Under the pieces are notes generated by a model, which was not told the origin of the DNA, did not search any database, and worked only from the letters and a program-made list of their open reading frames with translations. Shown in pieces: positions 4,681 through 25,730 of a stretch of 26,180 bases of DNA (within the stretch, counting starts at the first letter, position 1; each line of letters begins with the position of its first letter). The position numbers were made by a program, and so were the translations under genes. Source of the stretch: Rickettsiales bacterium (GTDB taxonomy: Bacteria; Pseudomonadota; Alphaproteobacteria; TMED127); contig PALU01000018.1 of the NCBI GenBank assembly GCA_002706585.1, forward strand, positions 14,522 to 40,701, written 5' to 3'.

Positions 4681-4758
4681 ATTGTTAAATTCAAATATTC
4701 TTGTAGATTAGAAGAAATAATAATACAAATTAAAAGAAAATCTTATTTAAATAAAAAT

Positions 4759-5703: not shown

Positions 5704-5712
5704 ATCTTTTAA

Positions 5713-8988: not shown

Positions 8989-10934
8989 TAATTATATTTT
9001 GATAACCATTTTTGAAAAATTATTATATTCCAAAGCTCTCTACTAAAATCTTTTTTACCACTTAAATGATTTTCTAAATAAACTTTAATTTGACTATTAT
9101 TTAAGTAACCTTGTTTTTCAATGTCTGAAAAATTTATAGCTTCAAGCATCCAATTTTTTAATGGTCCACTCAACCATTTACTTAATGGTATTGAAAATCC
9201 CATTTTTGGTCTGTTCACATATTTTTCAGGAACATATCTTTTTAAAACCTCCCTTAAAATTATTTTTGTATTGCTACCTTTTATTTTCATATTTCTATTT
9301 AAATTATTTGAAAAATTAACGATTTTTTGATTTAAAAAAGGTATTCTCGTTTCCAAACTGTAATGCATCGCTGCTCTATCTACTTTATGTAATATATCAC
9401 CAGTTAGATATGTTTCTTGATCAAATTTCATTAAATTTTCTACTAAATCATTATTGTTGTTTAGATATAAACCAATTTTGTCTTTAAATTCATCGATCTC
9501 TTTTTTTGAATTTTCGTTAATTAGAAGATTTTGAGTATTTTCTGTTATAGAAATAACTGCAAAACACATATCAGAAACAGATTTGCTATTAACCAAAATA
9601 TGACCAAGCTTCTTTATTTTATCATCTAATTGAGTGATTGATCTGTTATATAAAAATATTTTTCCTAAAATATTTTCAATAATACTAAGTATATTCATTG
9701 GTAATAAAGAAATAACTTTTCCAATCATAATTCTCAACTGATATGGGCAAATTTTTAAAAATTTATTAATTTTATCAAAAGCTACATATCTGTTATAACC
9801 TCCAAACAATTCATCTGCACCATCACCTGACAATATTACTTTTACACTATTAGAAGCAAACTTAGATATTATTGCCGATGGTATCTGGGAACTATCCGCA
9901 AAAGGTTCGTCGTATATATCGGGCATTTCTTTTGATAACTCAATCAAATCTTTAGAATTTACTAAAATTTCGTTATGTTCAGTATTAAGATGACTCGATA
10001 TATTTCTAGAATAATACTTTTCATCATATTTTAAATCCTCGAATACGACTGAAAATGTTTTAATTTTTTTATTTGATTGTTTCTGCATAATAGAAGTTAT
10101 TAAAGATGAATCTATTCCACCAGATAAAAAAGATCCAACTTCAACATCTGATATCATTGTATCACTAACTACAGTATTAATTGTTTTATCAAATAAATCT
10201 AAACAGTTTTCATTATTTAAATTCAAATTTTCTTGATCATAAAAAATATCGTATTTTTTGTTACTTATAATTTGATTATCGTTAAAACTAAATGTCAATA
10301 TTTTTCCAGCCTCTAATTTAAAAACGTTTTCAAAGATTGACAAAGGCTCCGGTATATAAGAAAAATTAAAAAAATAATTTACACTTGTTTTATTTATTTT
10401 TTTTTTAAAATCTGGAAATGATAATATTGACTTTAATTCTGAGGCAAAAATAAAATTGCCCTCCAAAAATCCATAATAAAGTGGTTTTTCCCCAAACTTA
10501 TCTCTAACCAAATATAGCAAATTTTTTTTCGTATCAATCACACAAAATGCAAACATACCTTGTAATCTACTAACAGTTTCTTGAATCCCCATTTCTGAAA
10601 TTGCCTCTAAAATTGTCTCTGTATCTGATGAACTTCTCCATTTAATATTTTTTTTTTTCTTTAAATATTCTCTTATTTCTAAATGATTATAAATTTCTCC
10701 ATTATATGAAATTATGTACTGACCCGATGAAGAAATCATCGGCTGATTACCCTTTTCACTTAAATCTAAAATACTTAATCTTGTATGACCTACAAATTGA
10801 GTTTGTTCATGATTGTTCCAAAACCCTTTATTATCTGGTCCTCTATGAGAAAGGCTTGAAACCATTTTTTGTAAGATCTCAAGTCCTAATTTCTTATTAG
10901 CTCTTTTCAATATAAAGCCTGAAATACCACACAT
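8988..10934 (-). CDS. asnB: Glutamine-hydrolysing asparagine synthase family amidotransferase (AsnB-like)
   Basis: A complete 648-residue enzyme. It begins MCGISGF with Cys2 exposed as the N-terminal nucleophile of class II glutaminases; SHRGPDN (29-35) and SYNGEIYNH follow. The synthetase domain has a PP-loop SGGIDSS (271-277), SGDGADELFGGYNR and ETRIPFLNQKIV, and ends with KMGFSIPLSKWLSGPL. Paralogues in O-antigen and capsule loci (WbpS/WbtH types) amidate sugar uronic acids rather than aspartate. The position between a methyltransferase and a ligase, with a UDP-sugar dehydrogenase and 4-epimerase in the window, supports that reading, but free-asparagine synthesis cannot be excluded. Two long runs, T10 at 10397-10406 and T11 at 10648-10658, are in frame. 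It follows the methyltransferase gene by 5 bases. Confidence 0.93.
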   Translation of the reverse strand: MCGISGFILKRANKKLGLEILQKMVSSLSHRGPDNKGFWNNHEQTQFVGHTRLSILDLSEKGNQPMISSSGQYIISYNGEIYNHLEIREYLKKKKNIKWRSSSDTETILEAISEMGIQETVSRLQGMFAFCVIDTKKNLLYLVRDKFGEKPLYYGFLEGNFIFASELKSILSFPDFKKKINKTSVNYFFNFSYIPEPLSIFENVFKLEAGKILTFSFNDNQIISNKKYDIFYDQENLNLNNENCLDLFDKTINTVVSDTMISDVEVGSFLSGGIDSSLITSIMQKQSNKKIKTFSVVFEDLKYDEKYYSRNISSHLNTEHNEILVNSKDLIELSKEMPDIYDEPFADSSQIPSAIISKFASNSVKVILSGDGADELFGGYNRYVAFDKINKFLKICPYQLRIMIGKVISLLPMNILSIIENILGKIFLYNRSITQLDDKIKKLGHILVNSKSVSDMCFAVISITENTQNLLINENSKKEIDEFKDKIGLYLNNNNDLVENLMKFDQETYLTGDILHKVDRAAMHYSLETRIPFLNQKIVNFSNNLNRNMKIKGSNTKIILREVLKRYVPEKYVNRPKMGFSIPLSKWLSGPLKNWMLEAINFSDIEKQGYLNNSQIKVYLENHLSGKKDFSRELWNIIIFQKWLSKYN

Positions 10935-10939
10935 AATAT

Positions 10940-11771
10940 TTATTTTTTATAACCAATAGCACACCAATATGGTTCTTTGGTGGATATTTGAATTTTGTGG
11001 AAACCAGTATTTTTAAATAACTTTAATATACTTTTTTTTGAATATCTTTTTTCGTATTTAGTCCCGAATCTATCAAGTGAATCGTTTCTCATAACATAGA
11101 ATGATTTATCTTTATAAATACTCAAGGGTACATTTTTTACACTTATTCCTATTAAGTCTAGTAAAAAAGAAATTCTTGCTAAAGGTAGATAAATTAATAT
11201 GGCGATTATCTCACAAATAATAGATTTTACAAAAAATTTTTGTCTACTTATTATTTTTCTAAAAATTTCTGATAATTTCCAAATATATTTATACGTTTGT
11301 GAGTGATCTTCAAAATTATGATAAAGATATACTAGAAAGGGAGAGTTTTTTTTTAGTTTTTTATAAACTATCTTAAAAGATTTCACTGGATATTTTAAAT
11401 GATGTATTACTCCAAGAGAATATGCAAAATCTAAAGAATTATCTTTTATATTTAATTGTTTAATTTCTATATTGAGAAATTCTACATTTTTAAATTTTTT
11501 AAATCTTTTTTTTGAAACATTAATTGCCTTTTTGCTAGGCTCAAGAAGATACATTTTTTTAATTTTTGGTATAATATATTTTGCCCATCGGCCTGATCCA
11601 GAACCTAAATCAATACCAATATTTTTTTTATTAAATTTTTTTTTTTGGAAATATCAAGAAATAAGTATTAAAAATTTTCTTTAGTTCAAGTTTAGAAACT
11701 TTACTATTATCAAACTTGACCCATTCGTTTCCAAAATCATTAATTATTTGATTTTGTTTTTGTTTTGTCAT
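10940..11771 (-). pseudogene. Class I SAM methyltransferase, frameshifted in an A11 tract
   Basis: From ATG 11771-11769 the frame reads MTKQKQNQIINDFGNEW and reaches FPKKK at residue 45, then two stops. One base fewer in the A11 run (+ strand T, 11636-11646) gives FNKKNIGIDLGSGSGRW, and the frame then stays open to 10940: a 276-residue protein. DLGSGSGRW (54-62) is the SAM-binding motif I, LLEPSKKAI the acidic-loop strand, SLGVIHHL motif-IV-like, and PYWCAIGYKK the C-terminus. The part after the shift can begin at ATG 11554 but then lacks motif I and would not bind SAM. The family occurs in glycan clusters and often methylates sugars; the substrate is unknown. The ATG overlaps the stop of the preceding glycosyltransferase (ATGA). 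Possible explanations: real loss, ON/OFF switching, RNA slippage or a base-call error. Confidence 0.85.
11636..11646 (-). repeat. Homopolymer A11 (coding strand), frameshift site in methyltransferase
   Basis: Eleven T on the + strand, A11 in the coding strand of the methyltransferase, lying after CC and before TTTAAT. With 11 A the frame meets TAA; with 10 A (or 13) it joins FNKKNIGIDLGSGSG in frame. Confidence 0.95.
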
Positions 11772-12914
11772 TTATTTTTATACACGTTATTTATTTTATT
11801 AAACATATTAATCAAGCTCATATTTCTTTTGGCAAATAAAAAACCGTTTAGCCCAAACCTTTGTCTTTTTTTTTTATCTCTAAGCTTTGAAATTGATTTT
11901 GCTAATAAATAAGGATCGTTTGGAGGAACTAAAAATCCATTAAAATTATTTCTAATTATTTCTGGCATTGCACTAGTATTACTTGTTATTATGGGTTTTT
12001 TAAAAATCATAGACTCTAAAAATACTAATCCTAAGCCCTCATATTTTGAGGTTAAAACAAATAAATCTATAGTTTGATAAAAATCTTGAACTCGATCCAT
12101 AAAGTCGATCCAAATAATTTTTTTTTCTACTTTTAATTTTTTGGCCAAAATTTGAAGTTCTTTTTTTAAAGGACCTTTACCAACAATTATTAACCTTGTT
12201 TTTATACTTTTGTTTATTAATGATAATGCTAAAATCAAATTATCTATTGATTTTTGTGGAACAAGTCTAGCAATACATCCTATCTTTAATTCGTTGATTT
12301 TTAATTTATATTTCTTTTTTAAGTTATTCTTCTTTAAGTTTTTTTTAAGAATATTTGATTTGCTTATTCCATAATAAATTACTTTTATTTTTTTTTTTAT
12401 CAATACCAACATAATCAGATATTAAAAATTTTTTAACCGATTTTGATATCGCAATAATTGAATTAGCTTTTTTACTTACAATTTTTTCCAATAAAGATCC
12501 TTTAAAATTTTTTTTTTGACCTAAAGATCCTTGAAAGTAAACATTGTCTACGTGTTTTGAAATTATAAATTTTGGTTTACTAGAAGATAAAAACAATGCG
12601 AAAAAACTTACAATTTCCATATAAGGTAAATGTGCGTGAACTACGTCTGGTTTATATTTGTTTATGATTTTAACTAATTGAAAAATATCTTTGTATAATT
12701 TATAGAATTTTTGAAAAAAACTTTCTTCAAAAAAAAAATTTGATTTAATTACATCAATATTATTTTTTTTTAAGATTTTAAGCCAATATTTACTATTTTT
12801 TGATATAAAAATTTTTACATCGTCTAAATTTTTTTTTTGAATTACTCCCAAAGAAGCAACATGGTTTTCTGCTCCACCTTTGTCTAAGCTAGTTATTGTA
12901 TGTAGTATTTTCAC
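11768..12914 (-). pseudogene. GT4 glycosyltransferase, frameshifted in an A11 tract
   Basis: The 5' frame starts at ATG 12914-12912 (MKILHTITSLDKGGAENHV, a classic GT4 beginning) and reads 175 residues to GIDKKK, after which it runs 14 junk residues to a stop. Dropping one A from the 11-A run (+ strand T, 12388-12398) joins it to IKVIYYGISKSN, and the frame stays open to 11768: about 381 residues. The C-terminal domain has IGCIARLVPQKSIDNLI, LIIVGKGPLKKEL and the donor-binding motif SKYEGLGLVFLESM, where E-x7-E is intact. This type transfers a sugar from a nucleotide donor with retention of configuration, in the cytosol. Both ends overlap neighbours by ATGA. The gene carries five runs of at least ten A or T (11866, 12388, 12508, 12729, 12829); only the 11-base one is out of frame. 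Confidence 0.87.
12388..12398 (-). repeat. Homopolymer A11 (coding strand), frameshift site in GT4
   Basis: Eleven T on the + strand between GAT and TAAAAG of the coding strand. A11 gives KKKNKSNLL and an early stop; A10 gives KKKIKVIYYG and an intact glycosyltransferase. Confidence 0.95.
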
Positions 12915-13966
12915 AATTTTTTTAGATATTTATTGATATTTTCAAAGATGATTGGTGCAGCATCTAATTTACCAGACATAACACTCAAAACTTTTTTATT
13001 ACATCTAATATTTGCTGTCCTTATATCATTTTTATCATCTTTGAATTTTGTTTTAATTGCAAATTCAATTTTAGTATCTCGTTGTCTTATTTTTAAATCT
13101 ATATATTGATTAAAATCTTCAATTATTTTTTTTTTTATTTTACTTTTAAAAGGGTCTATTTTCATCTTTTTTAAATAAAGGGACATCTGTGAAAGTTTAG
13201 AAAATTTTTTTACAGGGGTGTACTTTACACTTGAAATACTGAAGGAATTTTTATTTCTCGGATACAAAGAGACAAATTTTCCATCCATTATAGTAATACC
13301 AGGTATACTTTTTATTTTAATTGTAGGTATAACTAGCGCCGCTAATTCGTATTTTAAATTAAATTTATTTTTTTTATTTAATCCAAGATTTGGATTTAAA
13401 TAAGTGCAGTTGATTATAAAATCAAATTTATACTCTTTTTTATTTGATAATACTAATCTAGCTTCATCAGGAACAATTCTTTTTACAAATGAATTTAATT
13501 TTAAATCACAATTTTTTTTAATTTTAAGACCTAAATTTGGCAATAACTTATCTAATAAAATTACACCTTCTTTTGTATTTACGGCACCTAAATAATCCTG
13601 AGGGTTTTTTATATATTTAATTTTGCTAGCTTTAATTTTAATTAATTTTAGATTTTTAGACATACTTTTTGTATATGTGGAAAAGTCAATTAAACTATTT
13701 TTATGAATAAGATAATAATTATTTTTTGGGAAGTATAAATATTCCTTAAATTCCTTTTTAAATTTTTTGTAACCTCGAAATGTTTGATCAATTGTTTTCT
13801 TGCACCTTGGATAATGATAACCTTGATGCAAACGATATTGATTATTTTTTGCTGCTTCACTAAGTAGTGATGAATTTTTTTCAAAAATGGTTATATCATG
13901 TTTTTTTGAAAGCCTGCTAGCAATATAACAACCATAAAAGCCTGCACCAATAATTCCTATTTTCAC
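12911..13966 (-). CDS. FAD-dependent oxidoreductase (DAO-like)
   Basis: A 351-residue protein opening with MKIGIIGAGFYGCYIA, whose GAGFYG (residues 7-12) is the FAD-binding loop, followed by the strand ITIFEKN ending in the ribose-binding Glu. NNQYRLHQGYHYPRC comes next, a block I associate with FAD oxidoreductases in polysaccharide gene sets. FIINCTYLNPNLG resembles the second FAD-contact strand, and LSVMSGKLDAAPIIFENI closes the fold. The family (D-amino-acid oxidase/glycine oxidase fold) oxidises amines or alcohols; the substrate here is unknown, and an amino sugar or a sugar-linked amino acid is a guess. The stop overlaps the downstream GT4 ATG by 4 bases, and the start lies 3 bases after the radical SAM stop. 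An 11-T run at 13126-13136 is in frame. Confidence 0.78.
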   Translation of the reverse strand: MKIGIIGAGFYGCYIASRLSKKHDITIFEKNSSLLSEAAKNNQYRLHQGYHYPRCKKTIDQTFRGYKKFKKEFKEYLYFPKNNYYLIHKNSLIDFSTYTKSMSKNLKLIKIKASKIKYIKNPQDYLGAVNTKEGVILLDKLLPNLGLKIKKNCDLKLNSFVKRIVPDEARLVLSNKKEYKFDFIINCTYLNPNLGLNKKNKFNLKYELAALVIPTIKIKSIPGITIMDGKFVSLYPRNKNSFSISSVKYTPVKKFSKLSQMSLYLKKMKIDPFKSKIKKKIIEDFNQYIDLKIRQRDTKIEFAIKTKFKDDKNDIRTANIRCNKKVLSVMSGKLDAAPIIFENINKYLKKL

Positions 13967-13969
13967 AGC

Positions 13970-15004
13970 CTAGTCTCTTGTTTCTTTGTAACAATTTTTA
14001 CAAAAATCTTTCAGATCATGATTAATTATAGATTTTCTTAAATCTTTATAACTCTCAGAGTTCCAAATATTATGAAAATCATTATTATTCACATTTCCGT
14101 AATTATTTACTTTTGAATCCCCAATCATACAGCAAGAAACTATGTCTCCTTGTGCGGTTACATATGGATTATGCCAAGGATAGCTACACTTGTTACTCTC
14201 AGACAATAAATTACTTTCAACCACACGTGCTTTGAAATTTTGAGAATTATATCTATTTATAATTTCTTTTATAAATTTATTATTTTTTTCACCATAATTA
14301 ATGTCTGACTCGCGATTCTTGTTCTCCCAGTCATTCTTGCCCCAACCTGTTAACTGTACTTGTAACTCAAATTCATGAAAGCCTATATCTTTACATAATC
14401 TTACTATACTTTCCAGCTCATGATAATTTATCTTTTGTAGAAGACACATTGCTCTTAATTTAACTTTATTTTCATTTTTCTTAGATAATATTTTTACATT
14501 ATTAATAACTGTATCAAAGTTTGACTTTACTCTAATTTTTTCAAAAATTTCTTTTGAAGCACCATCAATACTTATTGAAACTCTGTATATAGATTTTGAA
14601 TTTAAAATTTTATCAATTATTTTTTCATTTAATAAACTTCCATTCGTAATTGTCTCCACGAATACACCATATTGATCGCAAATTTCTATCATTTCAAAAA
14701 AGTTCTTGTTTACAAACGGTTCTCCCATACCTTGTAACTTGACTTTAATTAACTGCAAATTTTGTTTAATTACATTTCTAAATGTTTCTACAGTCATATT
14801 ATTTGCTTTGAAATTTGGCTCAGAAACTTGACACATAGTACATCTAAAATTACATCCTGTTGTAGGCTCTATATCCATGGATAAAGGTTTGTATGGTGCG
14901 TAAGAACTAGGAAAATTTTTAAATATTATAAATTTAAACAAGTTAAATAATTTATATATTAAATATTTTTTTGGAATTTTAAAAATTAATTGTCTAATTC
15001 TCAT
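13970..15004 (-). CDS. Radical SAM/SPASM domain protein
   Basis: A 344-residue enzyme. Its first ~40 residues are basic and hydrophobic, then DIEPTTGCNFRCTMCQV supplies CxxxCxxC (C51, C55, C58) for the radical SAM [4Fe-4S] cluster. GMGEPFVNKNFFEM is the GGEP-like motif and RVSISIDGAS the following strand. The C-terminus has a SPASM-like cysteine set: CSYPWHNPYVTAQGDIVSCC and then FCKNC (C335, C338) close to the end. SPASM proteins bind auxiliary Fe-S clusters and modify peptides, or act as sugar or aminoglycoside dehydrogenases; members are common in surface-glycan loci. Located between a GT4 and an FAD oxidoreductase with 2-3 base gaps, it probably modifies a sugar or an amino-acid substituent of the glycan. 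The reaction cannot be read from sequence. Confidence 0.85.
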   Translation of the reverse strand: MRIRQLIFKIPKKYLIYKLFNLFKFIIFKNFPSSYAPYKPLSMDIEPTTGCNFRCTMCQVSEPNFKANNMTVETFRNVIKQNLQLIKVKLQGMGEPFVNKNFFEMIEICDQYGVFVETITNGSLLNEKIIDKILNSKSIYRVSISIDGASKEIFEKIRVKSNFDTVINNVKILSKKNENKVKLRAMCLLQKINYHELESIVRLCKDIGFHEFELQVQLTGWGKNDWENKNRESDINYGEKNNKFIKEIINRYNSQNFKARVVESNLLSESNKCSYPWHNPYVTAQGDIVSCCMIGDSKVNNYGNVNNNDFHNIWNSESYKDLRKSIINHDLKDFCKNCYKETRD

Positions 15005-15006
15005 TT

Positions 15007-16113
15007 TTAAAACAATTTAGAGTATTTTTTAAACATCTGTTCATAGTTAAAATGTAAATCTATACTTCTCCTTGCTGATTGAGACATTTTCTTTTGTAAA
15101 TCTAAACTTTGATAAATTTTTATTATTTTAAAATAAATCTTATCAATATTATTATCAACCAATACGATATTATCTACTCCTTTATATTTTTTTCTCAATC
15201 CAAAATTTCCACCAACATTAGAGGAAATTACTGGCAAACCTGATGACAATGCTTGAAGAATAGATGTGCTAGATGTTTCATCTTTACTTAAATGAAGGTA
15301 CAAATTTAAACTTTTAAACCATTTTTTTATTTCAGATTGATTTAAATTTCCCTCAAATTTAACAAATTTTTCTAAGCCATTTTTTTTTACAAATTTGTAA
15401 AGCTCATTTTTTGTTGGACCATCCCCAGCTAGAGATAATGTTATTTTATTTTTTATTAATATTTTTTTATATTTTTTAAATATTTTCAATAATAAATCCT
15501 GTCTTTTATCCGAATGAAATCTAGCCGCCATTCCTAATTTAAAATTTTTTGTTTTTTTAATTCTTTTACTTAAAAAATAATTTTTATTTATTCCATTAAT
15601 AATTATTCTAGGCTTTAGAAAAAAAAATTTATTAAGCCTATTAAAAAAACTAATTTTTTTTCTATTTGATACTACTACAGTTTGATCAGCAAAAAATGAA
15701 TTAAATACATATAAAAACCAATACTTAATACCTTTTGTTAAATCAGGTGTGTGATGAACATATATTAGTCTAAATTTATTTAAAAATTTAAAAATAAAAA
15801 AAATAAATAATGGAAAATCATGAACAATAATCACATCAAATTTTTTTTTAAATAAAAAATTGGATATTGAAAAAAAGTTATGAATTATATTTTTCTTAAA
15901 AATATACTTATATTGAGTGGAAATATTTTGACAAATTTTAACATGTGATGGTAGTAATTTTTCTACTCCATTAAATAGAAAAAAAAAACTATACTTTTTT
16001 TTATCAATATTTTTAGCACCTTCTACTAACGAAAATGCAACAGCACTGGTGCCTCCTAAACCAGAAAATACAATTTGTAATATTTTTTTTTTATTAGGGG
16101 GTTCAGTTAACAT
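15007..16113 (-). CDS. GT4 glycosyltransferase with E-x7-Q variant motif
   Basis: A 368-residue family-4 glycosyltransferase, first gene of the long minus-strand operon. It opens with ILQIVFSGLGGTSAVAFSL (glycine-rich acceptor-domain loop) and contains FDVIIVHDFPLF, a hydrophobic stretch LIYVHHTPDL, the domain linker RIIINGINKNYF, and the C-terminal domain LGMAARFHSDKRQDLLL, LSLAGDGPTKNEL. The donor motif is KDETSSTSILQALSSGLPVI: E279 is followed after seven residues by Q287 instead of the usual second Glu. The protein is otherwise full-length and undamaged. It transfers a sugar from a nucleotide donor to the growing lipid-linked repeat; donor unknown. A 10-T run at 16083-16092 sits in frame just after the start (PPNKKKILQI). 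Divergent from the ABC exporter across 98 bases. Confidence 0.87.
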   Translation of the reverse strand: MLTEPPNKKKILQIVFSGLGGTSAVAFSLVEGAKNIDKKKYSFFFLFNGVEKLLPSHVKICQNISTQYKYIFKKNIIHNFFSISNFLFKKKFDVIIVHDFPLFIFFIFKFLNKFRLIYVHHTPDLTKGIKYWFLYVFNSFFADQTVVVSNRKKISFFNRLNKFFFLKPRIIINGINKNYFLSKRIKKTKNFKLGMAARFHSDKRQDLLLKIFKKYKKILIKNKITLSLAGDGPTKNELYKFVKKNGLEKFVKFEGNLNQSEIKKWFKSLNLYLHLSKDETSSTSILQALSSGLPVISSNVGGNFGLRKKYKGVDNIVLVDNNIDKIYFKIIKIYQSLDLQKKMSQSARRSIDLHFNYEQMFKKYSKLF

Positions 16114-16153
16114 AAATAAAAATTATATTTAAATTATTAAATATCTATATAAT

Positions 16154-16171
16154 ATCAATTTTTAAATTGAT
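16154..16171. promoter_or_regulatory. 18-bp palindrome in divergent intergenic region
   Basis: ATCAATTT, two bases, then AAATTGAT: a perfect dyad in the 98 bases between the divergent GT4 and ABC exporter genes. A TATAAT on the + strand lies immediately before (16148-16153) and could be a -10 element, though no good -35 is seen. It may be an operator, but in DNA this A+T-rich such dyads can arise by chance. Confidence 0.22.
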
Positions 16172-16211
16172 TATATTTTAAAAAATTTCACAAGATGTAT
16201 TAAAAGCTTTA

Positions 16212-17909
16212 ATGAATAAAAAAATATTAAACCTAATTACTGGATTTAAGAAAAGTGATGTTTTTTTTATAATTTTTCTTGTCTTTATAGGATCTACTTT
16301 TGAAATTTTAAGTTTGGGTATAGTTATTCCTCTAATTTCAGTTTTTGCTGAAAATCCTGAGAACAGTATACTTGCTATATATTTGACTAAAATATTCGAT
16401 AAATCATTTAATTCTAATGAAGTAATCTTAATATTAAGCACCCTAATTTTAACTATATTTTTAACTAGATTTATATTTCTTAGTTTTTTAACAACTAAAA
16501 TTAATTTATTCATTTTCACTTGCCAAAAATTAATCAGTGAAAAGCTTTTGAAAATATTTATGAGTAAAAATTTCAACTGGCACTCTGAAAATAATAAATC
16601 GTATTTTATAAATTTAATGACGACTGAAGTTTTTAATTTCTGTCAAAATGGCTTATCTGGTTTTTTATTTTTATGCTCTGAGTTAATATTTTTTTTATCT
16701 ATTGTTGTATTTTTAGTTTTTTGGGAACCAAAAATATTTTTCTTGATTATGTTTATCTCTTTAATTTTCTTTCCGGTTCTAATTAAATTTACAAAAAAAG
16801 TTTCTTACTCTTTAGGAGTTACCAGGCAACAAATGGAAAGCAATATATTAATTTCAATAAATGAAAGTTTAAACGGAATAAAAGAAATGATACTTTACAA
16901 ATGGAGCAAGCCGGTAAAAGAAAAATTTTCCCTATTAGCTTCAAAATTGGTAAAAGTATCTGCTAAGCACAATAGTTTTCAAGACATAAGTAGATATCTA
17001 ATTGAATTATTCGGTGTCATTTTAGTCGTAATATTTATTTATTTCCTTACAGCCTCTAACAAAGAAAGTAATTTAATAACTATTGGGATTTTTGGAGCCG
17101 CATTGTTTAGATTAATGCCAATACTGAACAGAATTTCAACTTATTCTCAGAGATTGAAATATGGAATGGCTTCAACAAATAAAATCGATGAATTTTATAG
17201 AGATAATAAAAATAAATTAGATGAATTTGAAAATATTGAATTTCTAAATGATTTAATATTGAATAATATTTATTTTAAATTTAATAACAAAGATAAATTT
17301 GTTCTAGAAAATATTAATCTCAAAATTAAATCTAATGAAGTAATTGGTATAAGTGGTGAAAGTGGCTCCGGAAAAACAACATTAAGTAATATAATAATGG
17401 GTTTAATAACTCCTAGCTCAGGCGAAATAATAGTTGATGGTAAAAAAATTATAAACGAGAAACTATCAATTCAAAAAAATATAGCTTTCGTACCTCAAAA
17501 TTTTTTCCATATGGACTCAAATATTTTAGACAATATTACTTTTTTTGATAAAAAAGTTAAAATTAAAAATTTAAAATTTGCTTTAAAAAACTCTTTGTTA
17601 CTAGATTCTATTTTAAATAAAACCCTATCATTAAAGACTCATTTAGGAAATAATGCGCTAAAAATATCTGGAGGACAATTACAAAGAATTAGTATTGCTA
17701 GAGCAATTTATAGAATGCCCAAAATACTTATACTTGACGAACCAACAAGTGCTCTAGATCAAAAAAACCAGGATTTATTTAGTCAAATTATTCTAAATCT
17801 GAGAAAAAAGATTACAATTATTATAATTTCTCATAATAAAAATTTACTTCAAAATTGTGATAAAGTTTATTCCCTGGAAAGTAAAACTTTAAAAGAAATA
17901 GAGAAATAA
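16212..17909 (+). CDS. ABC exporter fused permease-ATPase, PglK/MsbA-like flippase
   Basis: A 565-residue half-transporter: about six hydrophobic segments over residues 15-310, then an ATPase domain. Walker A is GISGESGSGKTTL (near 380-392), the Q-loop AFVPQNFF, signature KISGGQLQRISIARA, Walker B ILILDEPTSALD and the switch His in IIISHNKN; all catalytic elements are present. This architecture belongs to lipid A/lipid-linked oligosaccharide flippases (MsbA, PglK). In a cluster with a WecA-like enzyme and no Wzx in view, flipping undecaprenyl-linked glycan is the most economical role; peptide or lipid export is possible. It is the only gene on + between two minus-strand operons; its stop lies one base from the stop of the convergent Gfo/Idh gene. 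ATG at 16212 is chosen because the preceding bases give no other in-frame start. Confidence 0.9.
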   Translation: MNKKILNLITGFKKSDVFFIIFLVFIGSTFEILSLGIVIPLISVFAENPENSILAIYLTKIFDKSFNSNEVILILSTLILTIFLTRFIFLSFLTTKINLFIFTCQKLISEKLLKIFMSKNFNWHSENNKSYFINLMTTEVFNFCQNGLSGFLFLCSELIFFLSIVVFLVFWEPKIFFLIMFISLIFFPVLIKFTKKVSYSLGVTRQQMESNILISINESLNGIKEMILYKWSKPVKEKFSLLASKLVKVSAKHNSFQDISRYLIELFGVILVVIFIYFLTASNKESNLITIGIFGAALFRLMPILNRISTYSQRLKYGMASTNKIDEFYRDNKNKLDEFENIEFLNDLILNNIYFKFNNKDKFVLENINLKIKSNEVIGISGESGSGKTTLSNIIMGLITPSSGEIIVDGKKIINEKLSIQKNIAFVPQNFFHMDSNILDNITFFDKKVKIKNLKFALKNSLLLDSILNKTLSLKTHLGNNALKISGGQLQRISIARAIYRMPKILILDEPTSALDQKNQDLFSQIILNLRKKITIIIISHNKNLLQNCDKVYSLESKTLKEIEK

Positions 17910-17910
17910 G

Positions 17911-18828
17911 TTATTTTATATTTCTATACATTACAGAATTATTTAATAGGAAGTTTAATTCCATATTAGAATAAGTTAGTTTTTTATTAAAATCCATCCA
18001 ACTTTTATTTTTTTTAATTCTTAATGATTTTTTTAGAAAATCGTCCATTGGATTAGAAATTTTTATCATTTTATTTTTAATAGATAAATAATTAATGAAA
18101 GTATCTTTTATTATTTTTGTTGGTCTCATAATTTTTGTTTCATTAATTTTAAAATAAAAATGAGATTTTTTTAAATTCTCATCCTGGATAAATTTGAATT
18201 CTAATTGAATTTTTTCATATTCAATTCTAGCACTCCAACTTTTCTTATTTGATTTAGAAACTATTTTTTTAATTCCTTTAACAAAATCATTTTTTTTAAT
18301 AATAATTGATATCAGTGATAAAGCATGTGGAAGAAGGTCCTGCATTATATATTTAAAAGTATGTTTGCCCCCTGTTTTGTAATAAACTTTAATATTTTTT
18401 ATTTGTTTTCTACTTTTACTATGTAATAGATATTTTTTTGCCAACATAATCATCGGATAGCAAACAATTAAATTTGGAAATTTTAAATAAATATTATCAA
18501 GAAAATTTTTATAATTTTTTTTTAATTTTTTTATAGAAACAATAGGTTTTTCTACAATTATTAAGCTATTAGTTTTTTTAATATAATTCAGATATTCATG
18601 ATGATATTCGGTATTAGCGCAAATACTTATTAATTGAAATTTTTTATTATTTATTAATCTAATATTTCCTGGTTTGGCGATTTTATTATTTAATTTATTT
18701 TTTTTAATAAATAATTCTGCTTTTTTTATATTTCTGCTAATAAAATAAACCTCATCATATCCCTTTTTAATTACTGATCTATAGTGAATTAAAGCGATTT
18801 TTGTTGAACCTATTATTGCCGCTCTCAT
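17911..18828 (-). CDS. Gfo/Idh/MocA-type NAD(P)-dependent oxidoreductase
   Basis: A 305-residue protein starting MRAAIIGSTKIALIHYRS, a Rossmann strand-loop-helix in which the usual GxGxxG is changed to GSTKIA. ISICANTEYHHEYL corresponds to the P-x-x-x-H-x-x block, and VEKPIVS (E93-K94-P95) is the family's cofactor-site EKP motif. The remaining two thirds should form the alpha/beta substrate domain. PHALSLISIIIKK provides a His near the expected catalytic position; the usual catalytic Lys is EKP Lys94. Family members oxidise or reduce sugars, nucleotide sugars or inositols. It stands between the flippase and the pseudaminic-type module, downstream of a hairpin and 77 bases of intergenic sequence, so it could be transcribed with that module or alone. 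Substrate unknown. Confidence 0.83.
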   Translation of the reverse strand: MRAAIIGSTKIALIHYRSVIKKGYDEVYFISRNIKKAELFIKKNKLNNKIAKPGNIRLINNKKFQLISICANTEYHHEYLNYIKKTNSLIIVEKPIVSIKKLKKNYKNFLDNIYLKFPNLIVCYPMIMLAKKYLLHSKSRKQIKNIKVYYKTGGKHTFKYIMQDLLPHALSLISIIIKKNDFVKGIKKIVSKSNKKSWSARIEYEKIQLEFKFIQDENLKKSHFYFKINETKIMRPTKIIKDTFINYLSIKNKMIKISNPMDDFLKKSLRIKKNKSWMDFNKKLTYSNMELNFLLNNSVMYRNIK

Positions 18829-18891
18829 TTATAATTATAATTTATTATATAATTTAAATTTTATTAACATTTTTATAAAGTTTATTTCATA

Positions 18892-18929
18892 AATTTAAGA
18901 TATATTTAATATATATTGTATCTTAAATT
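18892..18929 (-). terminator. Inverted repeat over the 3' end of the cytidylyltransferase gene
   Basis: AATTTAAGATA (18892-18902) and TATCTTAAATT (18919-18929) are perfect 11-base complements around a 16-base loop. The loop contains the TAA stop (18908-18906) of the cytidylyltransferase. It could be a terminator or RNA-stabilising hairpin for the minus-strand operon, but no clear U-run follows it. Confidence 0.4.
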
Positions 18930-19619
18930 AATTTTTTTAATATCAGATCTTCTTTTAAGAAATTTCACAATTTGATTTGAAGAAAAATATATATTAGGCT
19001 TGAAATAGCTTACAATTTTATCTACAACTTTTAAATCTTCTTTATAGTCTACTGTGATCCTAAAATTTTTTTCATTTTTAGTTTTTAAAAAATGTTTTAT
19101 TAAAAATTTATCTTGATTTTTAGTCAAATAAGAAGTCACATGCTCTTTATCATATTTTGATTTGGCATAAAATTTTATTCTACTTAATGTTTTGAAAGTA
19201 AACATTTCCATGTCCATTCCATGTGGAAAGGATCTTTTTATCGTGTTGGAAATATAGTCTTTACTACTGGAATTAAATAGTTTTATTAGTCTGTCAACTA
19301 ATCTGAAATCAATCAATGGACAATCACCTGTTAGTCTTATTATTTTTTTTGCTTTTAACTTTTTTGCAGCTTTGTAATATCTAGACAAAACATCACGCTC
19401 ATCACCTAGAAAGTAGTTGATTTTATTTTTAGTTAAAAATTTTTTTAATTCCTGATTATTTTTTCTGGGTATAAGAAAGTAAATTTTTTTTTTTGATTTT
19501 ATTTTTATTAATCTCTTAAACTGTAATTTAATTATTTCATTATCATTTATTTTGTGAAGAACTTTATTTTTAAATCTTTTTGATCCTTGCCTTGCTTGGA
19601 CCATTATAAAAGTTGTCAT
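18906..19619 (-). CDS. Cytidylyltransferase family protein (SpsF/PseF-like)
   Basis: A protein of 237 residues from ATG 19619 (MTTFIMVQARQGSKR). A TTG at 19634, overlapping the PseB stop, would add five residues, but the ATG places the nucleotide-binding strand IMVQARQGSKRFKNKVL at the family's usual distance from the start. LTGDCPLIDFRLVD is the strand with the metal-binding Asp, NYFLGDERDVLSRYY the characteristic second block, and FPHGMDMEMF follows. This is the SpsF/NeuA-type cytidylyltransferase fold, which activates sugars such as pseudaminic acid as CMP derivatives. Its place directly after pseB supports a PseF-like role. SpsF-family proteins also occur as part of other glycan routes, so the sugar is not certain. 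An 11-T run at 19484-19494 is in frame. Confidence 0.82.
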   Translation of the reverse strand: MTTFIMVQARQGSKRFKNKVLHKINDNEIIKLQFKRLIKIKSKKKIYFLIPRKNNQELKKFLTKNKINYFLGDERDVLSRYYKAAKKLKAKKIIRLTGDCPLIDFRLVDRLIKLFNSSSKDYISNTIKRSFPHGMDMEMFTFKTLSRIKFYAKSKYDKEHVTSYLTKNQDKFLIKHFLKTKNEKNFRITVDYKEDLKVVDKIVSYFKPNIYFSSNQIVKFLKRRSDIKKINLRYNIY

Positions 19620-19630
19620 ACTTTTACTCT

Positions 19631-20614
19631 TCAATCTAGTTCTTCTGCAATAAATTTTTTAAGCTCACTAACAGTTAAAAATTCTGGATTATTTCCAGAA
19701 TTATAATGAAATTTTTTACTTACATATTTAGATTTTTTATATTTTTTTAATTTTTTCGAATAATCACTTAAGATTGCATAATAATTACCTAAATCTATTG
19801 TACTTAATGCATCGCTTAATGAAATCATTTCCTCATGAAGTTTTTCACCTGGTCTTATTCCTACTTTTTTTATTTTTGCATTTAGATTAAATGCCCTAGC
19901 TAATTCGGTTATTTTAAAAGATGGTATTTTAGGAACAAATATCTCTCCACCTTGCATATTTTCTAATACCCATAAAACCATCTGAATACTTTTTTTTAAA
20001 GTTATATTGAAACGTGTCATATTAAAATCAGTGATAGGGAAAATATCTTTGTTTTTAATTTTTTTAAATATAGGCGCGATTGAACCTCGACTTCCAAAAA
20101 CATTACCGTATCTCACAACGCTATACTTTATATCTCGTTTACCTTTTATATTATTTGCTGATGTAAATAATTTATCTGAACATAATTTTGTTGCTCCATA
20201 CAAATTAATCGGAGATGAAGCTTTGTCAGTAGATAAAGCAATTACTTTTTTTATATTACTATCTAAGGACTCTTCAATGATATTTTGAGCACCTAATATA
20301 TTTGTCTTGATATATTCTATAGGATTATACTCTGCAGTTGGAACTTGTTTTAAAGCAGCAGCATGAATTAAAACATCAACATCTTCAAATGCTCTTTTAA
20401 GCCTTTGTTTATCTCTTACATCCCCCAAGAAAAATCTTAATCTTTTATTTTTTTTAACATCATATTTTTTTTGCATTTCGAATTGCTTTAATTCGTCTCT
20501 ACTAAAAATCACTATTCTTCTAGGGCCATTTTTCATTTTTAATAGAAAATCAATCATTGCTTTTCCAAAGGATCCCGTACCACCAGTAATTAAAATTGAT
20601 TTATTTTTAATCAT
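19631..20614 (-). CDS. pseB: UDP-N-acetylglucosamine 4,6-dehydratase (inverting), PseB
   Basis: A 327-residue SDR enzyme. ITGGTGSFGKAM (9-20) binds NADP; FSRDELKQFEM and FFLGDVRDKQRL are typical of PseB/FlaA1; HAAALKQVPTAEYNP is the conserved block. The catalytic set is T129-D130-K131 in ALSTDKASSP with Y139 and K143 in LYGATKLCSDK. It is near the family's usual length of about 330. PseB removes water across C4-C6 of UDP-GlcNAc with C5 inversion to give UDP-2-acetamido-2,6-dideoxy-beta-L-arabino-hexos-4-ulose, first step of the pseudaminic acid route. It begins 8 bases inside the end of pseC and ends overlapping the cytidylyltransferase region, so the three genes form a translationally coupled unit. 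Confidence 0.95.
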   Translation of the reverse strand: MIKNKSILITGGTGSFGKAMIDFLLKMKNGPRRIVIFSRDELKQFEMQKKYDVKKNKRLRFFLGDVRDKQRLKRAFEDVDVLIHAAALKQVPTAEYNPIEYIKTNILGAQNIIEESLDSNIKKVIALSTDKASSPINLYGATKLCSDKLFTSANNIKGKRDIKYSVVRYGNVFGSRGSIAPIFKKIKNKDIFPITDFNMTRFNITLKKSIQMVLWVLENMQGGEIFVPKIPSFKITELARAFNLNAKIKKVGIRPGEKLHEEMISLSDALSTIDLGNYYAILSDYSKKLKKYKKSKYVSKKFHYNSGNNPEFLTVSELKKFIAEELD

Positions 20615-21783
20615 TTGTTTTGAATTTAGACAAAATATCTTTTACACTTTTAATAACTTTCATCAATTCCTTTATGCTTAAATCATAATAAATAGGCATA
20701 CTTATTGAGGATTCATAAAATTTCTCTGAGGATTTAAATTGTTGACCTCTTTTAAGAAATTTGTAGTAAGAAAATTTATAAATTGGAATATAATGATATT
20801 GAGGAAAAATATTTTTTTTATTCAACATTTTTATAAATTTATCTTTATTAATTTTAAGTTTTTTAAAATTTAATGAAAAAATAACTAAGTGATAGGATGA
20901 TGTTAAATTTAAAGATGATTTATATATTTTTACTCTATCCTGAAAATCTCTGAAGCTATTTAAATATATATTTGCAATAGAGTTTCTTTTTTGAATAAAA
21001 CTATTTAATTTACCTACTTGTGAAAATGCTAAGGAAGCATTTAAATCTGACATTCTAAAATTAAAGCTTGGAAATATTACATCATAATTCCAGTATCTCT
21101 TTGATAATTTTGCTCTATCAATACCATGGGAACGCAATAATTTAAATTTTCTACTGAGTAATTTAGAATTGGTGCTTAAAAAACCACCTTCTCCAGAGGT
21201 AATAGTTTTAACAGGATGTAAAGAAAAAGTTGATATATCTGAATGAAGACAACTTCCAATTTTAATCTGTCTATTTTTAAACTTATAGCTAGACCCTAAA
21301 GCATGACAACTATCTTCTATTAAGAAAAAATTATATTTTTTTTTTTAGTTTATAAAATTCTAACACATTTTGCGGACTTCCTCCCAAATACATTGTAATT
21401 ACTGCTTTAATTTTTTTAATTTTGTTTATCTTGATACATTCAATTAACTTTTCTGGTGTCATTTGACCGGTAAATTCATCTACATCACATAAAAATATTT
21501 TTGCACCTAAAAATGTTGCCATATTTACAGATGCTATAAAATTAATAGCAGGAATAATAATGATATCTCCTTTAGATAAATTTATTGACCTCATTGCAAT
21601 ATAGAGAGCACTTGTGCCGCTGGAACAAGTTACTACTTCTTTTACTTTAAGATATCTGCACAATTTTTTTTCAAGCTTTGTAACATAAGGCCCTGTAGTA
21701 ATAAGATTATTTTTTAATGATTTCAAAACTTCTATTTTATCTGAAGTATCAATGTGCTGCTTATTGTAAGTTATTTTTCCCAT
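20607..21783 (-). pseudogene. pseC: PseC-type aminotransferase, frameshifted in an A11 tract
   Basis: The frame from ATG 21783-21781 gives 149 good residues (ITTGPYVTKLEKKL, CSSGTSALYIAM, PAINFIASVN, MYLGGSPQNV) to LKKK, and then stops at 21331. Removing one A from the A11 run (+ strand T, 21336-21346) yields YNFFLIEDSCHALGS and an open frame to 20607: 391 residues, the normal DegT/DnrJ/EryC1 length. EDSCHALG holds the PLP-contacting Asp157 and FSLHPVKTITSGEGG the PLP lysine (K192), both beyond the shift, so the truncated product would be dead. An internal ATG at 21137 gives a C-terminal piece without the lysine. PseC aminates C4 of the PseB product. It overlaps pseB by 8 bases. Possible explanations are as for the other A11 interruptions. 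Confidence 0.88.
21336..21346 (-). repeat. Homopolymer A11 (coding strand), frameshift site in pseC
   Basis: Eleven T on the + strand between CT and TATAAT of the coding strand. A11 gives LKKKI then TAA; A10 gives LKKKYNFFLIEDSCH, which restores the aminotransferase. Confidence 0.95.
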
Positions 21784-21899
21784 AAATAAATTATGTGATG
21801 TTTAAATTAGAAAAAAAATTAAGCAGTTTATTAGGAGAAAACATATAATTTAAAAATTTTGTTAGTAGTCTAATTTACACTTTTCTATAATAAATAATT

Positions 21900-23051
21900 T
21901 TAATTATCAAAATTTATTTTTTCTAAATTAAGATTATTATCTTTTTTAAGAGAGCCGTCAGAATTACATTTAAATATTTTTTTATTTGTAAATTTGTCAC
22001 AAATTTTAATAAATTCATCTAAAGACATGCCAATTTCACCCAAAATTTCCTCTAAAGGTTTATCTAAATATTTTATTGGGAATTTTCCCTCATTCATTCT
22101 TATAAATTCAAGTGCATCTTTTTTTGTAATTTTGCCTCTTCTGATTTCCATAGAAAGTTGAGCTGATGCTCTACCATATCCAAATTTTAAATAACAAAAA
22201 TAATCGTGAATTCCTGTTTGATAATTATCCAAATTTTCAAAATTGAAATATGATCCTTCAAGTGGTTTATGCCATTCCTTAAATCCATTTTTAAGTGCAA
22301 TATCTCTATTTTCAGAACTATCCCAATTAAAATAATAACCTAAAAAAATACCTTCAATTTTTTCTTTATCTAATTCATCCACATCTGGATATTGATATAA
22401 TATAAAATCTTTTTCACTTAAACCTTCGATTGAAATTAAATCATCAACTCTTAAAGCTCCCATTCCACCAAATTCTTGAAGCCAATTATGATCTAAAATA
22501 TTTTTTTGAGAATCTTTTTCTGGGCCACCATACTCTGTTTGAGAATTTTCTCCCCAAATAATAAATTTAATTTTTTCTTTCAAAGCAACTCTTATGGGTA
22601 ATGTAAAAATTGCAATATGTTCTGGCCAGGAAATATCTCCAATAGTTTCTAAAGAAAATTTGTTTACTTTCCGCCTAACAGCAGGATTTAAAGTTATTTC
22701 ATAATAATCAACACCTAAATTTTTTATATTCTCAATGTTATATCTGCCAATTTCAGATAAAGAGTCAGTCATAGCAGTAATACACAATGGATTTAAACCA
22801 TACTCTAATGCCTTTACTACTTGATAGGTACTGTCTTTTCCTCCGGAAACAGGAATTACACAATCATGTTTTTTATTTGAGGTCTTAAAGCTTTGCACAA
22901 GCTCTAAAAACTTATCTTCTCTTTTTTTCCAGTCAACTATTTTTTTGTTTTCATACGATGTGCATGCATTGCAAACACCGTCTTTGTTGATATACAGATG
23001 GGGCTTTGTATTTGGATACAAGCATTTTACACAGTAAACTAGTTTGTTCAT
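21900..23051 (-). CDS. N-acetyl sugar amidotransferase (PseA/WbpG family)
   Basis: A 383-residue protein. The N-terminus carries two CxxC pairs (C7/C10 and C27/C30, in VYCVKCLYPN and GVCNACTSY), a likely zinc-binding domain. The ATP-pyrophosphatase loop is VIPVSGGKDST with SGGKDS at 69-74. WGENSQTEYGGPEKD and FGYGRASAQLSMEIRRG are blocks of the N-acetyl sugar amidotransferase family (WbpG, PseA). These ligases use ammonia to convert a sugar N-acetyl group to an acetamidino group; WbpG works with HisH- and HisF-like partners, which are not in this window. The ATG overlaps the methylase stop by 4 bases, and 116 bases separate its stop from the pseC start. Substrate probably the pseudaminic-type sugar or the uronic acid; undecided. 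Confidence 0.9.
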   Translation of the reverse strand: MNKLVYCVKCLYPNTKPHLYINKDGVCNACTSYENKKIVDWKKREDKFLELVQSFKTSNKKHDCVIPVSGGKDSTYQVVKALEYGLNPLCITAMTDSLSEIGRYNIENIKNLGVDYYEITLNPAVRRKVNKFSLETIGDISWPEHIAIFTLPIRVALKEKIKFIIWGENSQTEYGGPEKDSQKNILDHNWLQEFGGMGALRVDDLISIEGLSEKDFILYQYPDVDELDKEKIEGIFLGYYFNWDSSENRDIALKNGFKEWHKPLEGSYFNFENLDNYQTGIHDYFCYLKFGYGRASAQLSMEIRRGKITKKDALEFIRMNEGKFPIKYLDKPLEEILGEIGMSLDEFIKICDKFTNKKIFKCNSDGSLKKDNNLNLEKINFDN

Positions 23052-23680
23052 ATTTTTTTGATCAAAAACCAGTTCATATCATCTTGTGGAAATTTATCTT
23101 TTCTATAAACAAACCCATAATCTATCAAAAGAGTTTTAGAATATTTATCTAAAATTTCTCCAGCAAAATCTCTCTTAAAAAGAACATTTTTATTTCCTCT
23201 ATAATTTATAGAAATAGGATTTTGACTATAATATTCACAGATCAAGATATGCCCATTTTTTTTACACGAGTCATAAATCTTTTTATAAATTCTATTTAAT
23301 TTATTTGGGTTAATATGTATCAGGAACCCTTTACATAAAACTAAGTCATATTTTTTTTTTGGAGAATAGTCTAGAACAGACTTGTTTATAGGATTTACAT
23401 ACTTAAGTCTACTCAATTGAGCGTGAGCTTCATGATTGATTTCTACAGCAGAAATCTGTTTAAATTTTTTAATTTTATTTAATGCCATTAAATTTAAACC
23501 TATATTAGATCCAAACTCGATAAGTGTTTTTACCTTTGATTTATTTAAATTTTTTAAGCATTTTAAGAAAAAATACTTATTATTTGTGACCCATTTTTTT
23601 GTCTCATGTCTTTTAATATAGTCAGAGCCAAATTTTCCTTTCCAAAAATTTTCTTGTTGGGTAGTTTGTGATTTGCTCAT
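23048..23680 (-). CDS. Pseudaminic acid biosynthesis-associated methyltransferase
   Basis: A 210-residue class I SAM methyltransferase. QENFWKGKFGSDYIKRH at the N-terminus is the hallmark of the pseudaminic-acid-associated methylase family. LIEFGSNIGLNL (53-64) is the SAM-binding motif, AVEINHEAHAQL the acidic-loop strand, YDLVLCKGFLIHINP the following motif and GHILICEYYSQNPI the post-motif strand. Family members occur with pse genes and are thought to methylate the sugar or a substituent; I know of no proven substrate. It is the first gene of the minus-strand module, divergent from the B12-binding radical SAM gene across 87 bases. A 10-T run at 23351-23360 is in frame (SPKKKYDL). The assignment to this family is firm, the reaction is not. 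Confidence 0.88.
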   Translation of the reverse strand: MSKSQTTQQENFWKGKFGSDYIKRHETKKWVTNNKYFFLKCLKNLNKSKVKTLIEFGSNIGLNLMALNKIKKFKQISAVEINHEAHAQLSRLKYVNPINKSVLDYSPKKKYDLVLCKGFLIHINPNKLNRIYKKIYDSCKKNGHILICEYYSQNPISINYRGNKNVLFKRDFAGEILDKYSKTLLIDYGFVYRKDKFPQDDMNWFLIKKI

Positions 23681-23721
23681 TTTGTCGAGTTTATAGCATA
23701 TTTCTTATAAGTGTCACTGAT

Positions 23722-23727
23722 TATAAT
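23722..23727 (+). promoter_or_regulatory. Possible -10 element for the radical SAM gene
   Basis: A TATAAT lies 40 bases before the ATG at 23768 in the 87-base divergent region. The sequence 17 bases upstream (TATTTC) is a poor -35, and no Shine-Dalgarno is visible before the ATG, so support is weak. Confidence 0.28.
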
Positions 23728-23767
23728 TTTTATTAGATATTTCTGTGTTATGTGTTAAAACAAAAAA

Positions 23768-25345: not shown

Positions 25346-25463
25346 TCAAACTGCAAATTCGATAAATCTTAAAAAAAAATTTATTTTCTTCAATATACCA
25401 TTTATATCGTACACTAATAAAACATTTTAACATTGAGCAAAAAGTAAAGATAAATAAATATTT

Positions 25464-25482
25464 TTTTGTCTAAAAGACAAAA
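25464..25482. other. Short inverted repeat after the radical SAM gene
   Basis: TTTTGTCT (25464-25471), three A, AGACAAAA (25475-25482) form an 8-bp stem. It is the only hairpin I see in 25346-25535, a gene-free stretch otherwise without recognisable features. No U-run follows on either strand, so it is not a textbook terminator. Confidence 0.3.
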
Positions 25483-25535
25483 CAACTAAATAAATAAATT
25501 GATATTCAAAGAAGTTTATATTAGAAACTTCACAT

Positions 25536-25665: not shown

Positions 25666-25671
25666 TAACAG

Positions 25672-25729: not shown

Positions 25730-25730
25730 T

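What the first reader, a model, noticed from the sequence alone, without database searches (positions are those of the whole stretch)
11636..21346. Three glycan genes are each one base out of frame, all at exactly 11-A tracts
The methyltransferase (11636-11646), a GT4 (12388-12398) and pseC (21336-21346) are each split at an A11 tract in the coding strand. In all three, A10 restores the complete protein with all motifs. No other damage is seen in these genes. Other tracts of 11 (5160, 10648, 13126, 19484) and one of 12 (5941) are in frame in intact genes, and all 10-base tracts I found (4157, 10397, 11866, 12508, 12729, 12829, 15979, 16083, 23351) are in frame. So a uniform over-call of 11-A runs would not explain it. 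Options: slipped-strand phase variation of a surface glycan using poly(A), as poly(G)/poly(C) tracts act in Campylobacter and Neisseria; RNA polymerase slippage restoring frame in part of the mRNA, as reported for A+T-rich insect endosymbionts; or polymerase/consensus errors. Poly(A)-based switching of a whole glycan module would be unusual.
Basis: partly seen in the sequence, partly recalled or inferred. Interest (0 to 1): 0.85.

Follow-up and report, generated by a model that had tools for sequence, protein, structure and literature searches.

The report
Slipped A-runs in SAR11 glycan genes
In one stretch of an ocean SAR11 bacterium's genome, three sugar-coat genes are knocked out of frame at long runs of A, most likely because such runs slip easily in bacteria that lack mismatch repair (or because they were misread), while near-identical genes elsewhere are intact.

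Summary
In detail: MT, GT4 and the PseC-like aminotransferase each change frame at an A11 tract; no break was seen at the other long tracts. Missed: a fourth glycan gene (GT, 2409-3566) has an in-frame TAG at 2667-2669, where its SAR11 relative has Glu; and intact near-identical versions of all three frameshifted proteins exist in other assemblies, two of them apparently on one 26370-bp contig. The source is SAR11. Among 40 PseC relatives, 16 carry A10 at this site and none A11, so the window is +1. MutS was found in 0 of 99 SAR11 genomes, MutL in 1 of 99. In a survey of 130 loci (2.5 Mb), tracts >=11 outside the window were 171 in frame and 3 broken, so 3 of 8 here is an outlier. Tracts >=11 are not enriched in glycan-like genes, and the MT and GT4 tracts are not conserved. 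I favour real slippage at unrepaired tracts in a lineage that lost this glycan (0.5) over contig-specific sequence error (0.37) and a dedicated poly(A) switch (0.1). Poly(A) switching of a surface glycan is already known (Vibrio cholerae O1). Reads would decide.

The parts
10940..11771 (-). SAM methyltransferase gene, split into 11631-11771 (N-terminal, 46 aa) and 10940-11635 (C-terminal frame)
   Evidence: PF08241 on the C-terminal piece; intact relative P0123, 276 aa; frame pieces
11636..11646 (-). A11 on the coding strand; frame change in the methyltransferase
11768..12914 (-). GT4 glycosyltransferase gene, split into 12345-12914 and 11768-12412
   Evidence: PF00534 on the C-terminal piece; intact P0243, 381 aa, 100%
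12388..12398 (-). A11 on the coding strand; frame change in the GT4
20607..21783 (-). DegT-family sugar aminotransferase (PseC/LegC-like by recall), split into 21331-21783 and 20607-21335
   Evidence: PF01041 on the C-terminal piece; intact P0003, 391 aa
21336..21346 (-). A11 on the coding strand; frame change in the aminotransferase; the 40 relatives compared have an A run of 10 or shorter here
2409..3566 (-). fourth broken gene: GT4-type glycosyltransferase with an in-frame stop
   Evidence: PF00534 on the upstream part; G002 relative, 61%, open frame 401 aa
2667..2669 (-). TAG stop where the G002 relative has Glu (EGMPKATLEALAAG)
5160..5170 (+). A11 inside an uninterrupted ORF (comparison tract)
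5941..5952 (+). A12 in frame in a sugar epimerase-like gene (comparison tract)
10648..10658 (-). A11 in frame in an AsnB-like gene (comparison tract)
13126..13136 (-). A11 in frame in an FAD-oxidoreductase-like gene (comparison tract)
19484..19494 (-). A11 in frame in a cytidylyltransferase-like gene (comparison tract)
1145..23680 (.). surface-glycan island: glycosyltransferases, epimerases, O-antigen ligase domain, ABC transporter, CMP-sugar and aminosugar genes
   Evidence: Pfam matches for most of the genes

Best explanation
This is a SAR11 (Pelagibacterales) surface-glycan island in which three genes were inactivated by +1 slipped-strand insertions at long coding poly(A) tracts and a fourth by a nonsense mutation. 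Shown: the frame changes, the stop, intact near-identical proteins in other assemblies, the A10 state in many PseC relatives, and the lack of MutS (and nearly always MutL) in the SAR11 genomes searched. Inferred: without mismatch repair A10-A12 runs slip often. Once one gene of the glycan pathway was lost, perhaps under phage pressure, the others were released from selection, so several breaks accumulated in one lineage. No dedicated switching machinery is needed. The broken alleles may leak a little through RNA-polymerase slippage.
For: The three indels all lie in tracts >=10 (chance about 4e-7). Intact near-identical proteins exist elsewhere, so the breaks are recent and not family-wide. Of 40 PseC relatives 16 carry A10 and none A11. 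MutS was found in 0 of 99 SAR11 genomes and MutL in 1 of 99, with 11 of 14 control genomes positive in each search; passages of PMC12374537 report mutS and mutL missing from deep-sea SAR11 subclades. MMR-deficient P. aeruginosa gains 230x indels, all in homopolymers, insertions 3.3x commoner than deletions (PMC4702332 passages), which fits +1. Among genes unrelated to the window's, A>=11 runs are rarer than expected (117 vs 146.1; 0 of 200 shuffles as low), while glycan-like genes match expectation (51 vs 54.1). The nonsense codon fits decay of the whole island and is not a homopolymer error.
Against: In other SAR11 assemblies tracts >=11 are nearly always in frame (171 in frame, 3 broken), so three breaks in one contig is an outlier (Fisher p about 0.001). 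All three are +1, as a systematic contig error could give. Non-glycan genes below 27% G+C also match expectation (87 vs 91.1), and in non-glycan genes A>=12 is not clearly avoided (58 vs 65.8; 16 of 200 as low), so tolerance is not glycan-specific. In P. aeruginosa 96% of the mutator indels lay in G:C runs, so the effect on A runs in SAR11 is not measured. No reads were available, and the window's own genome is not held.
Confidence: 0.5

Rival explanations
1. Sequence or consensus error specific to this contig: stochastic +1 over-calling at the longest A runs (plus, separately, one substitution giving the TAG).
For: Other assemblies hold the same proteins intact. Breaks cluster by assembly: outside the window 3 of the 4 accepted breaks at tracts >=10 lie in one genome, G081, and there all in the opposite direction to the window. 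The two window breaks recorded are both +1, and the GT4 pieces show the same direction.
Against: No break was seen at the 9 tracts of 10 or the 16 tracts of 9. The TAG in the fourth gene is a substitution at a residue conserved in its relative and needs a second kind of error. The sequencing technology is unknown.
Confidence: 0.37
2. Dedicated poly(A) contingency loci that switch the glycan on and off by reversible slippage, as in V. cholerae O1 wbeL/manA.
For: Three genes of one surface-glycan island are hit by tract indels, with in-frame alleles in near-identical strains. A>=10 runs are slightly raised in glycan-like genes (138 vs 125.0; 4 of 200 shuffles as high). Three short database relatives (P0170, P0058, P0075) start 9 to 32 residues after the tract site and could be further tract breaks, or contig-edge fragments. 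Known precedent (PMC3441752).
Against: A>=11 is not enriched (51 vs 54.1). The MT tract is absent in the DNA relatives examined (longest A run 4-7) and in P0124; P0245 reads DRNK at the GT4 site. The PseC A10 follows from a conserved Lys-Lys-Lys and AT-rich codons. 57 of 58 PseC-family matches run nearly full length in one frame.
Confidence: 0.1
3. Frame is restored in part of the mRNA by RNA-polymerase slippage, so the genes work as they stand, as proposed for Blochmannia.
For: In Blochmannia vafer eight genes are frameshifted in poly(A/T) tracts, and earlier work cited there gave 30% full-length transcripts (PMC3017870 passages).
Against: Insertions dominate transcription slippage in A/T runs (PMC5574713, abstract and one section read), whereas these alleles need -1 or +2. 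It would not help the TAG gene.
Confidence: 0.03

Closest known systems
Vibrio cholerae O1 wbeL and manA poly-A phase variation (PMC3441752)
   Same: Single-base indels in coding poly-A tracts of surface-glycan genes; loss gives phage escape; leaky function of the frameshifted wbeL allele was inferred there
   Different: There -1 at A8/A9, and the wbeL tract is conserved in all 37 O1 strains; here +1 giving A11, tracts not conserved in two of three genes, reversibility not tested
Poly(A) frameshifts in Blochmannia (PMC3017870)
   Same: AT-rich reduced genomes; breaks at long A/T runs with otherwise intact genes
   Different: There they include housekeeping genes such as dnaX and dnaG; here the three lie in a glycan island of a free-living bacterium
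Listeria inlA 5' poly(A) tract (PMC2831843)
   Same: Hypermutable coding poly(A) tract that inactivates a surface gene
   Different: Tract at the 5' end; here the tracts lie about 16-46% into the genes
Campylobacter flgR/flgS A/T-tract phase variation (as cited in PMC7677240 passages)
   Same: A/T homopolymer slippage in an AT-rich genome, no special element needed
   Different: Motility regulators, experimentally reversible

Membership tests
Simple-repeat phase-variable (contingency) locus | Gene frame set by the length of a homopolymer tract | tested here: met
   Intact relatives join the two frames at the tract
Simple-repeat phase-variable (contingency) locus | On and off alleles coexist in one population | tested here: inconclusive
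   Near-identical intact proteins exist in other assemblies, but no reads from the same sample were available
Simple-repeat phase-variable (contingency) locus | Tract kept by selection across relatives or above codon expectation | tested here: not met
   MT tract absent in the DNA relatives examined, P0245 lacks the GT4 Lys run; A>=11 in glycan-like genes 51 vs 54.1 expected, although A>=10 is slightly raised (138 vs 125.0)
Simple-repeat phase-variable (contingency) locus | Reversible switching with a phenotype | not testable with these tools
   needs culture or deep reads
Slippage frameshift in a mismatch-repair-deficient AT-rich genome | No MutS/MutL | tested here: met
   0 of 99 and 1 of 99 SAR11 genomes, controls 11 of 14 in each search; tested in relatives only, the window's own genome is not held
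Slippage frameshift in a mismatch-repair-deficient AT-rich genome | Indels sit in the longest homopolymers and genes are otherwise intact | tested here: met
   a fourth gene has a stop that is not a tract indel
Transcriptional-slippage rescue (Blochmannia/Buchnera type) | mRNA heterogeneity at the tract | not testable with these tools
   no cDNA data

The most novel reading that the evidence does not exclude
SAR11 glycan islands act as an unprogrammed contingency system. Loss of MutS/MutL plus very low G+C makes ordinary A10-A13 runs in glycan genes slip often enough that coat-off cells arise continually and help escape phages, without any evolved switch; the window caught one such coat-off lineage.
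Probability: 0.2. Interest if true: 0.7.

Novelty: new member of a known kind. Interest (0 to 1): 0.4.

Why it matters
SAR11 is among the most abundant bacteria in the sea (recalled), and its surface glycans are likely phage receptors (inferred). If poly(A) slippage without mismatch repair routinely breaks coat genes, phage escape and coat diversity would have a simple mutational source that can be measured in existing reads. If it is an error, it warns that frameshifts at A>=10 in AT-rich marine contigs must be checked before genes are called lost.

Tried and rejected
Same-species DNA was sought and not found. Window 9000-26180 against the SAR11 family gave at best 80% over 3.8 kb (in one search, 318 of 397 genomes were scored, one candidate each, and 79 could not be). 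GT4 P0243 matched 0 of 397 genomes at 1e-40, with only up to 4 candidates scored per genome in the rows shown and no positive control, so this is weak. MT P0123 matched 5 of 397, PseC P0003 58 of 297 at 1e-60. Single-protein scans of genome contigs and viral contigs confirmed no relative; the profile scan gave 80 loci.

Seventeen short relatives were fetched to look for truncation at the tracts. None starts or ends within 8 residues of a tract site. P0170 (methyltransferase, contig 11023) starts 9 residues after it, and P0058 and P0075 (aminotransferase, contigs 869 and 3060) about 26 to 32 residues after it. They may be further tract breaks or fragments; not resolved.

A recoded TAG was considered for the fourth gene and dropped without a dedicated test. 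A uniform over-call was rejected because 5 of 8 tracts >=11 are in frame.

In the survey 29 candidate splits were listed, 3 of them in the window. Outside it I accepted four at tracts >=10 (L135 A11, L135 A10, L183 T12, L223 A11/T10; the last two are weaker). Five at shorter runs (L135 A9, L206 T8, L218 A8, L230 A7, L139 A8) were not counted. The remaining 17 I set aside by eye as ribosomal-RNA shadows, fused or unfused gene pairs, or same-frame stops, without testing each. Loci left out before the survey: L002, L006, L130 (overlaps), L013-L080 (mostly other bacteria), L081-L119 (short). Parts of L001 and L183 read N. Only breaks where both pieces have a relative in the set are found; the window's own GT4 was missed.

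Recalled, not tested: that G081 may be isolate HIMB5 and G038 HTCC7211 (from contig lengths), the EX7E reading of the conserved Glu, and the PseA/B/C names.
Full report
What is there. The window is a 23.7% G+C glycan island with glycosyltransferases, epimerases, an O-antigen ligase domain, an AsnB-like gene, a cytidylyltransferase, a DegT aminotransferase and methyltransferases (four of the 20 proteins searched had no Pfam match at 1e-5). Its closest DNA relatives are SAR11 single cells: AG-915-O08 (L001) and AG-365-N15 (L002/G002, 80% over window 21880-25686). No genome of the same species was found. The window's GT4 fragment appears in the protein collection on a contig of 40701 bases (P0259).

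The observation. The frame changes at 11636-11646, 12388-12398 and 21336-21346. Intact proteins exist for all three: P0003 (391 aa; one substitution, Lys where the window has Ile at residue 17; 6 contigs, longest 26370 bases), P0243 (381 aa, identical to the pieces; 4 contigs, longest 26370) and P0123 (276 aa, 3 substitutions in the 231 residues compared; one contig of 11853). So the genes are otherwise nearly or wholly undamaged, and the same genes are in frame elsewhere. P0003 and P0243 list the same longest-contig length, which I read as one contig carrying both; I have not seen that DNA.

What was missed. The GT gene 2409-3566 is interrupted by TAG at 2667-2669. Its G002 relative (61% identity, open frame 401 aa) reads Glu there and aligns across the stop in one frame. 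Four glycan genes are therefore broken: three by tract insertions, one by a substitution. Of the other genes, most with a relative in the survey set align over most of their length; 3556-4680 aligns over about 70%, several relatives are distant, and 4759-5703 had none.

Ancestral tract length. In 40 PseC-family relatives (two of them, L010 and L244, look alike) the longest A run at this site is 10 in 16, 9 in 5 and 8 or less in 19; none has 11, and each aligns across the site in one frame. Of 58 matches in 297 SAR11 genomes at 1e-60, 57 run nearly full length in one frame and one (G002) is cut by a contig end; six rows report one stop inside, which I did not follow up, and a badly broken relative could have fallen below the cut-off. 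The window therefore carries a derived +1. The methyltransferase tract is absent in the DNA relatives examined (longest A run 4-7), and P0124 reads PKKEF there. At the GT4 site P0244 encodes DKKK but P0245 DRNK. Two of the three tracts thus look young, and the third follows from a conserved Lys-Lys-Lys.

How unusual. I compared 130 loci, 2.52 Mb: the window and about 45 SAR11 genomes. In 1798 ORFs with a near-full-length relative, A/T tracts in frame number 305 at length 10, 98 at 11, 50 at 12 and 27 at 13 or more, the window's own included. Outside the window I accepted four frame breaks at tracts >=10: three in genome G081 (L135 A11, L135 A10, L183 T12) and one in G004 (L223); L183 and L223 are weaker. 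For tracts >=11 that is 3 broken against 171 in frame, versus 3 of 8 in the window (Fisher p about 0.001; 0.009 if only the two window breaks the survey itself detected are used). The window's breaks are +1; those of G081 and G004 go the other way. This grouping by assembly is the strongest argument for error. A single lineage that lost its glycan would also group breaks.

Why tracts slip here. MutS (TIGR01070) was found in 0 of 99 SAR11 genomes and MutL (TIGR00585) in 1 of 99 (G051), while 11 of 14 control genomes rang in each search. Seven chosen genomes, G081 among them and most of them also, gave no MutS at 1e-5. The completeness of these genomes is not told. [quoted passage not shown] In MMR-deficient P. 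aeruginosa all 108 indels lay in homopolymers and insertions were 3.3 times commoner than deletions (PMC4702332 passages); but 96% were in G:C runs, so the size of the effect for A runs in SAR11 is not known.

Selection on tracts. Synonymous codons were shuffled within genes. 'Glycan-like' means any gene with a match to a window glycan-island ORF (267 genes), so it includes some transporters and enzymes from elsewhere. In the other 1257 genes A>=11 runs are rarer than expected (117 vs 146.1; 0 of 200 shuffles as low), though A>=12 is not clearly so (58 vs 65.8; 16 of 200). In glycan-like genes A>=11 matches expectation (51 vs 54.1) and A>=10 is slightly raised (138 vs 125.0; 4 of 200 as high); A>=9 is raised in both classes. 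Non-glycan genes below 27% G+C also match expectation at A>=11 (87 vs 91.1). By G+C alone, avoidance is strongest in genes at 30% or more (A11, A12 and >=13 together 6 observed, 22.0 expected) and absent below 24% (85 vs 76.7). Long tracts are tolerated in AT-rich, probably weakly constrained genes; at A>=11 they are not favoured in glycan genes.

Reading. The best account is real slippage in an unrepaired, AT-rich island, with several genes lost in one lineage; the nonsense codon supports real decay. A contig-specific error is nearly as likely. A dedicated switch is the least supported of these three. Transcriptional rescue could leak some product, but insertions dominate in A/T runs (PMC5574713, abstract and one section read) and these alleles need -1 or +2.

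Literature. Poly(A) switching of a surface glycan is known: passages of PMC3441752 describe wbeL (A8) and manA (A9) in V. cholerae O1 with phage escape. PMC2831843 (abstract) treats poly(A) tracts as general inactivation sites. PMC7677240 passages cite A/T-tract switching in Campylobacter. Searches for SAR11 with phase variation (13 papers listed), Pelagibacter with homopolymer and frameshift (5 papers), and at least two of SAR11, homopolymer, phase variable and slipped-strand (12 of 468 listed) showed no report of this in SAR11 in the titles and abstract starts that I saw; most subscription papers are not held.

Noticed in passing
L135 (G081:C1:1010001-1030000) + strand about 1410 and 18116; L183 - strand about 11162: A second SAR11 genome has frame breaks at A10-A12 tracts in its low-GC region, in the opposite direction to the window; the L183 case is weaker.
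   Followed up: partly
P0170 (contig of 11023 bases, not held as DNA): A methyltransferase relative (63%) whose open frame starts 9 residues after the tract site of the window's gene; possibly another tract break, possibly a fragment.
   Followed up: no
25534-25615: AdoCbl-II riboswitch shortly before a gene at 25716 onward that looks like a TonB-dependent receptor (resemblance recalled, not searched).
   Followed up: no
23768-25345: The radical-SAM-like protein here is 97% identical to its best match in G002, while the neighbouring island proteins reach 72-82%: a sharp conservation step at the island edge, suggesting a recombination boundary.
   Followed up: no
G051:C12:15376-16842: The only MutL among 99 SAR11-family genomes; could be real or contamination. 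No MutS was found in that genome.
   Followed up: no
SAR11 loci of the survey: A>=11 runs are strongly avoided in genes of 30% G+C or more (6 vs 22 expected) and not avoided below 24% G+C.
   Followed up: yes
L206 - strand about 11530; L218 + strand about 8865: Frame breaks at 8-base runs in two conserved genes, the second TonB-receptor-like by recall.
   Followed up: no
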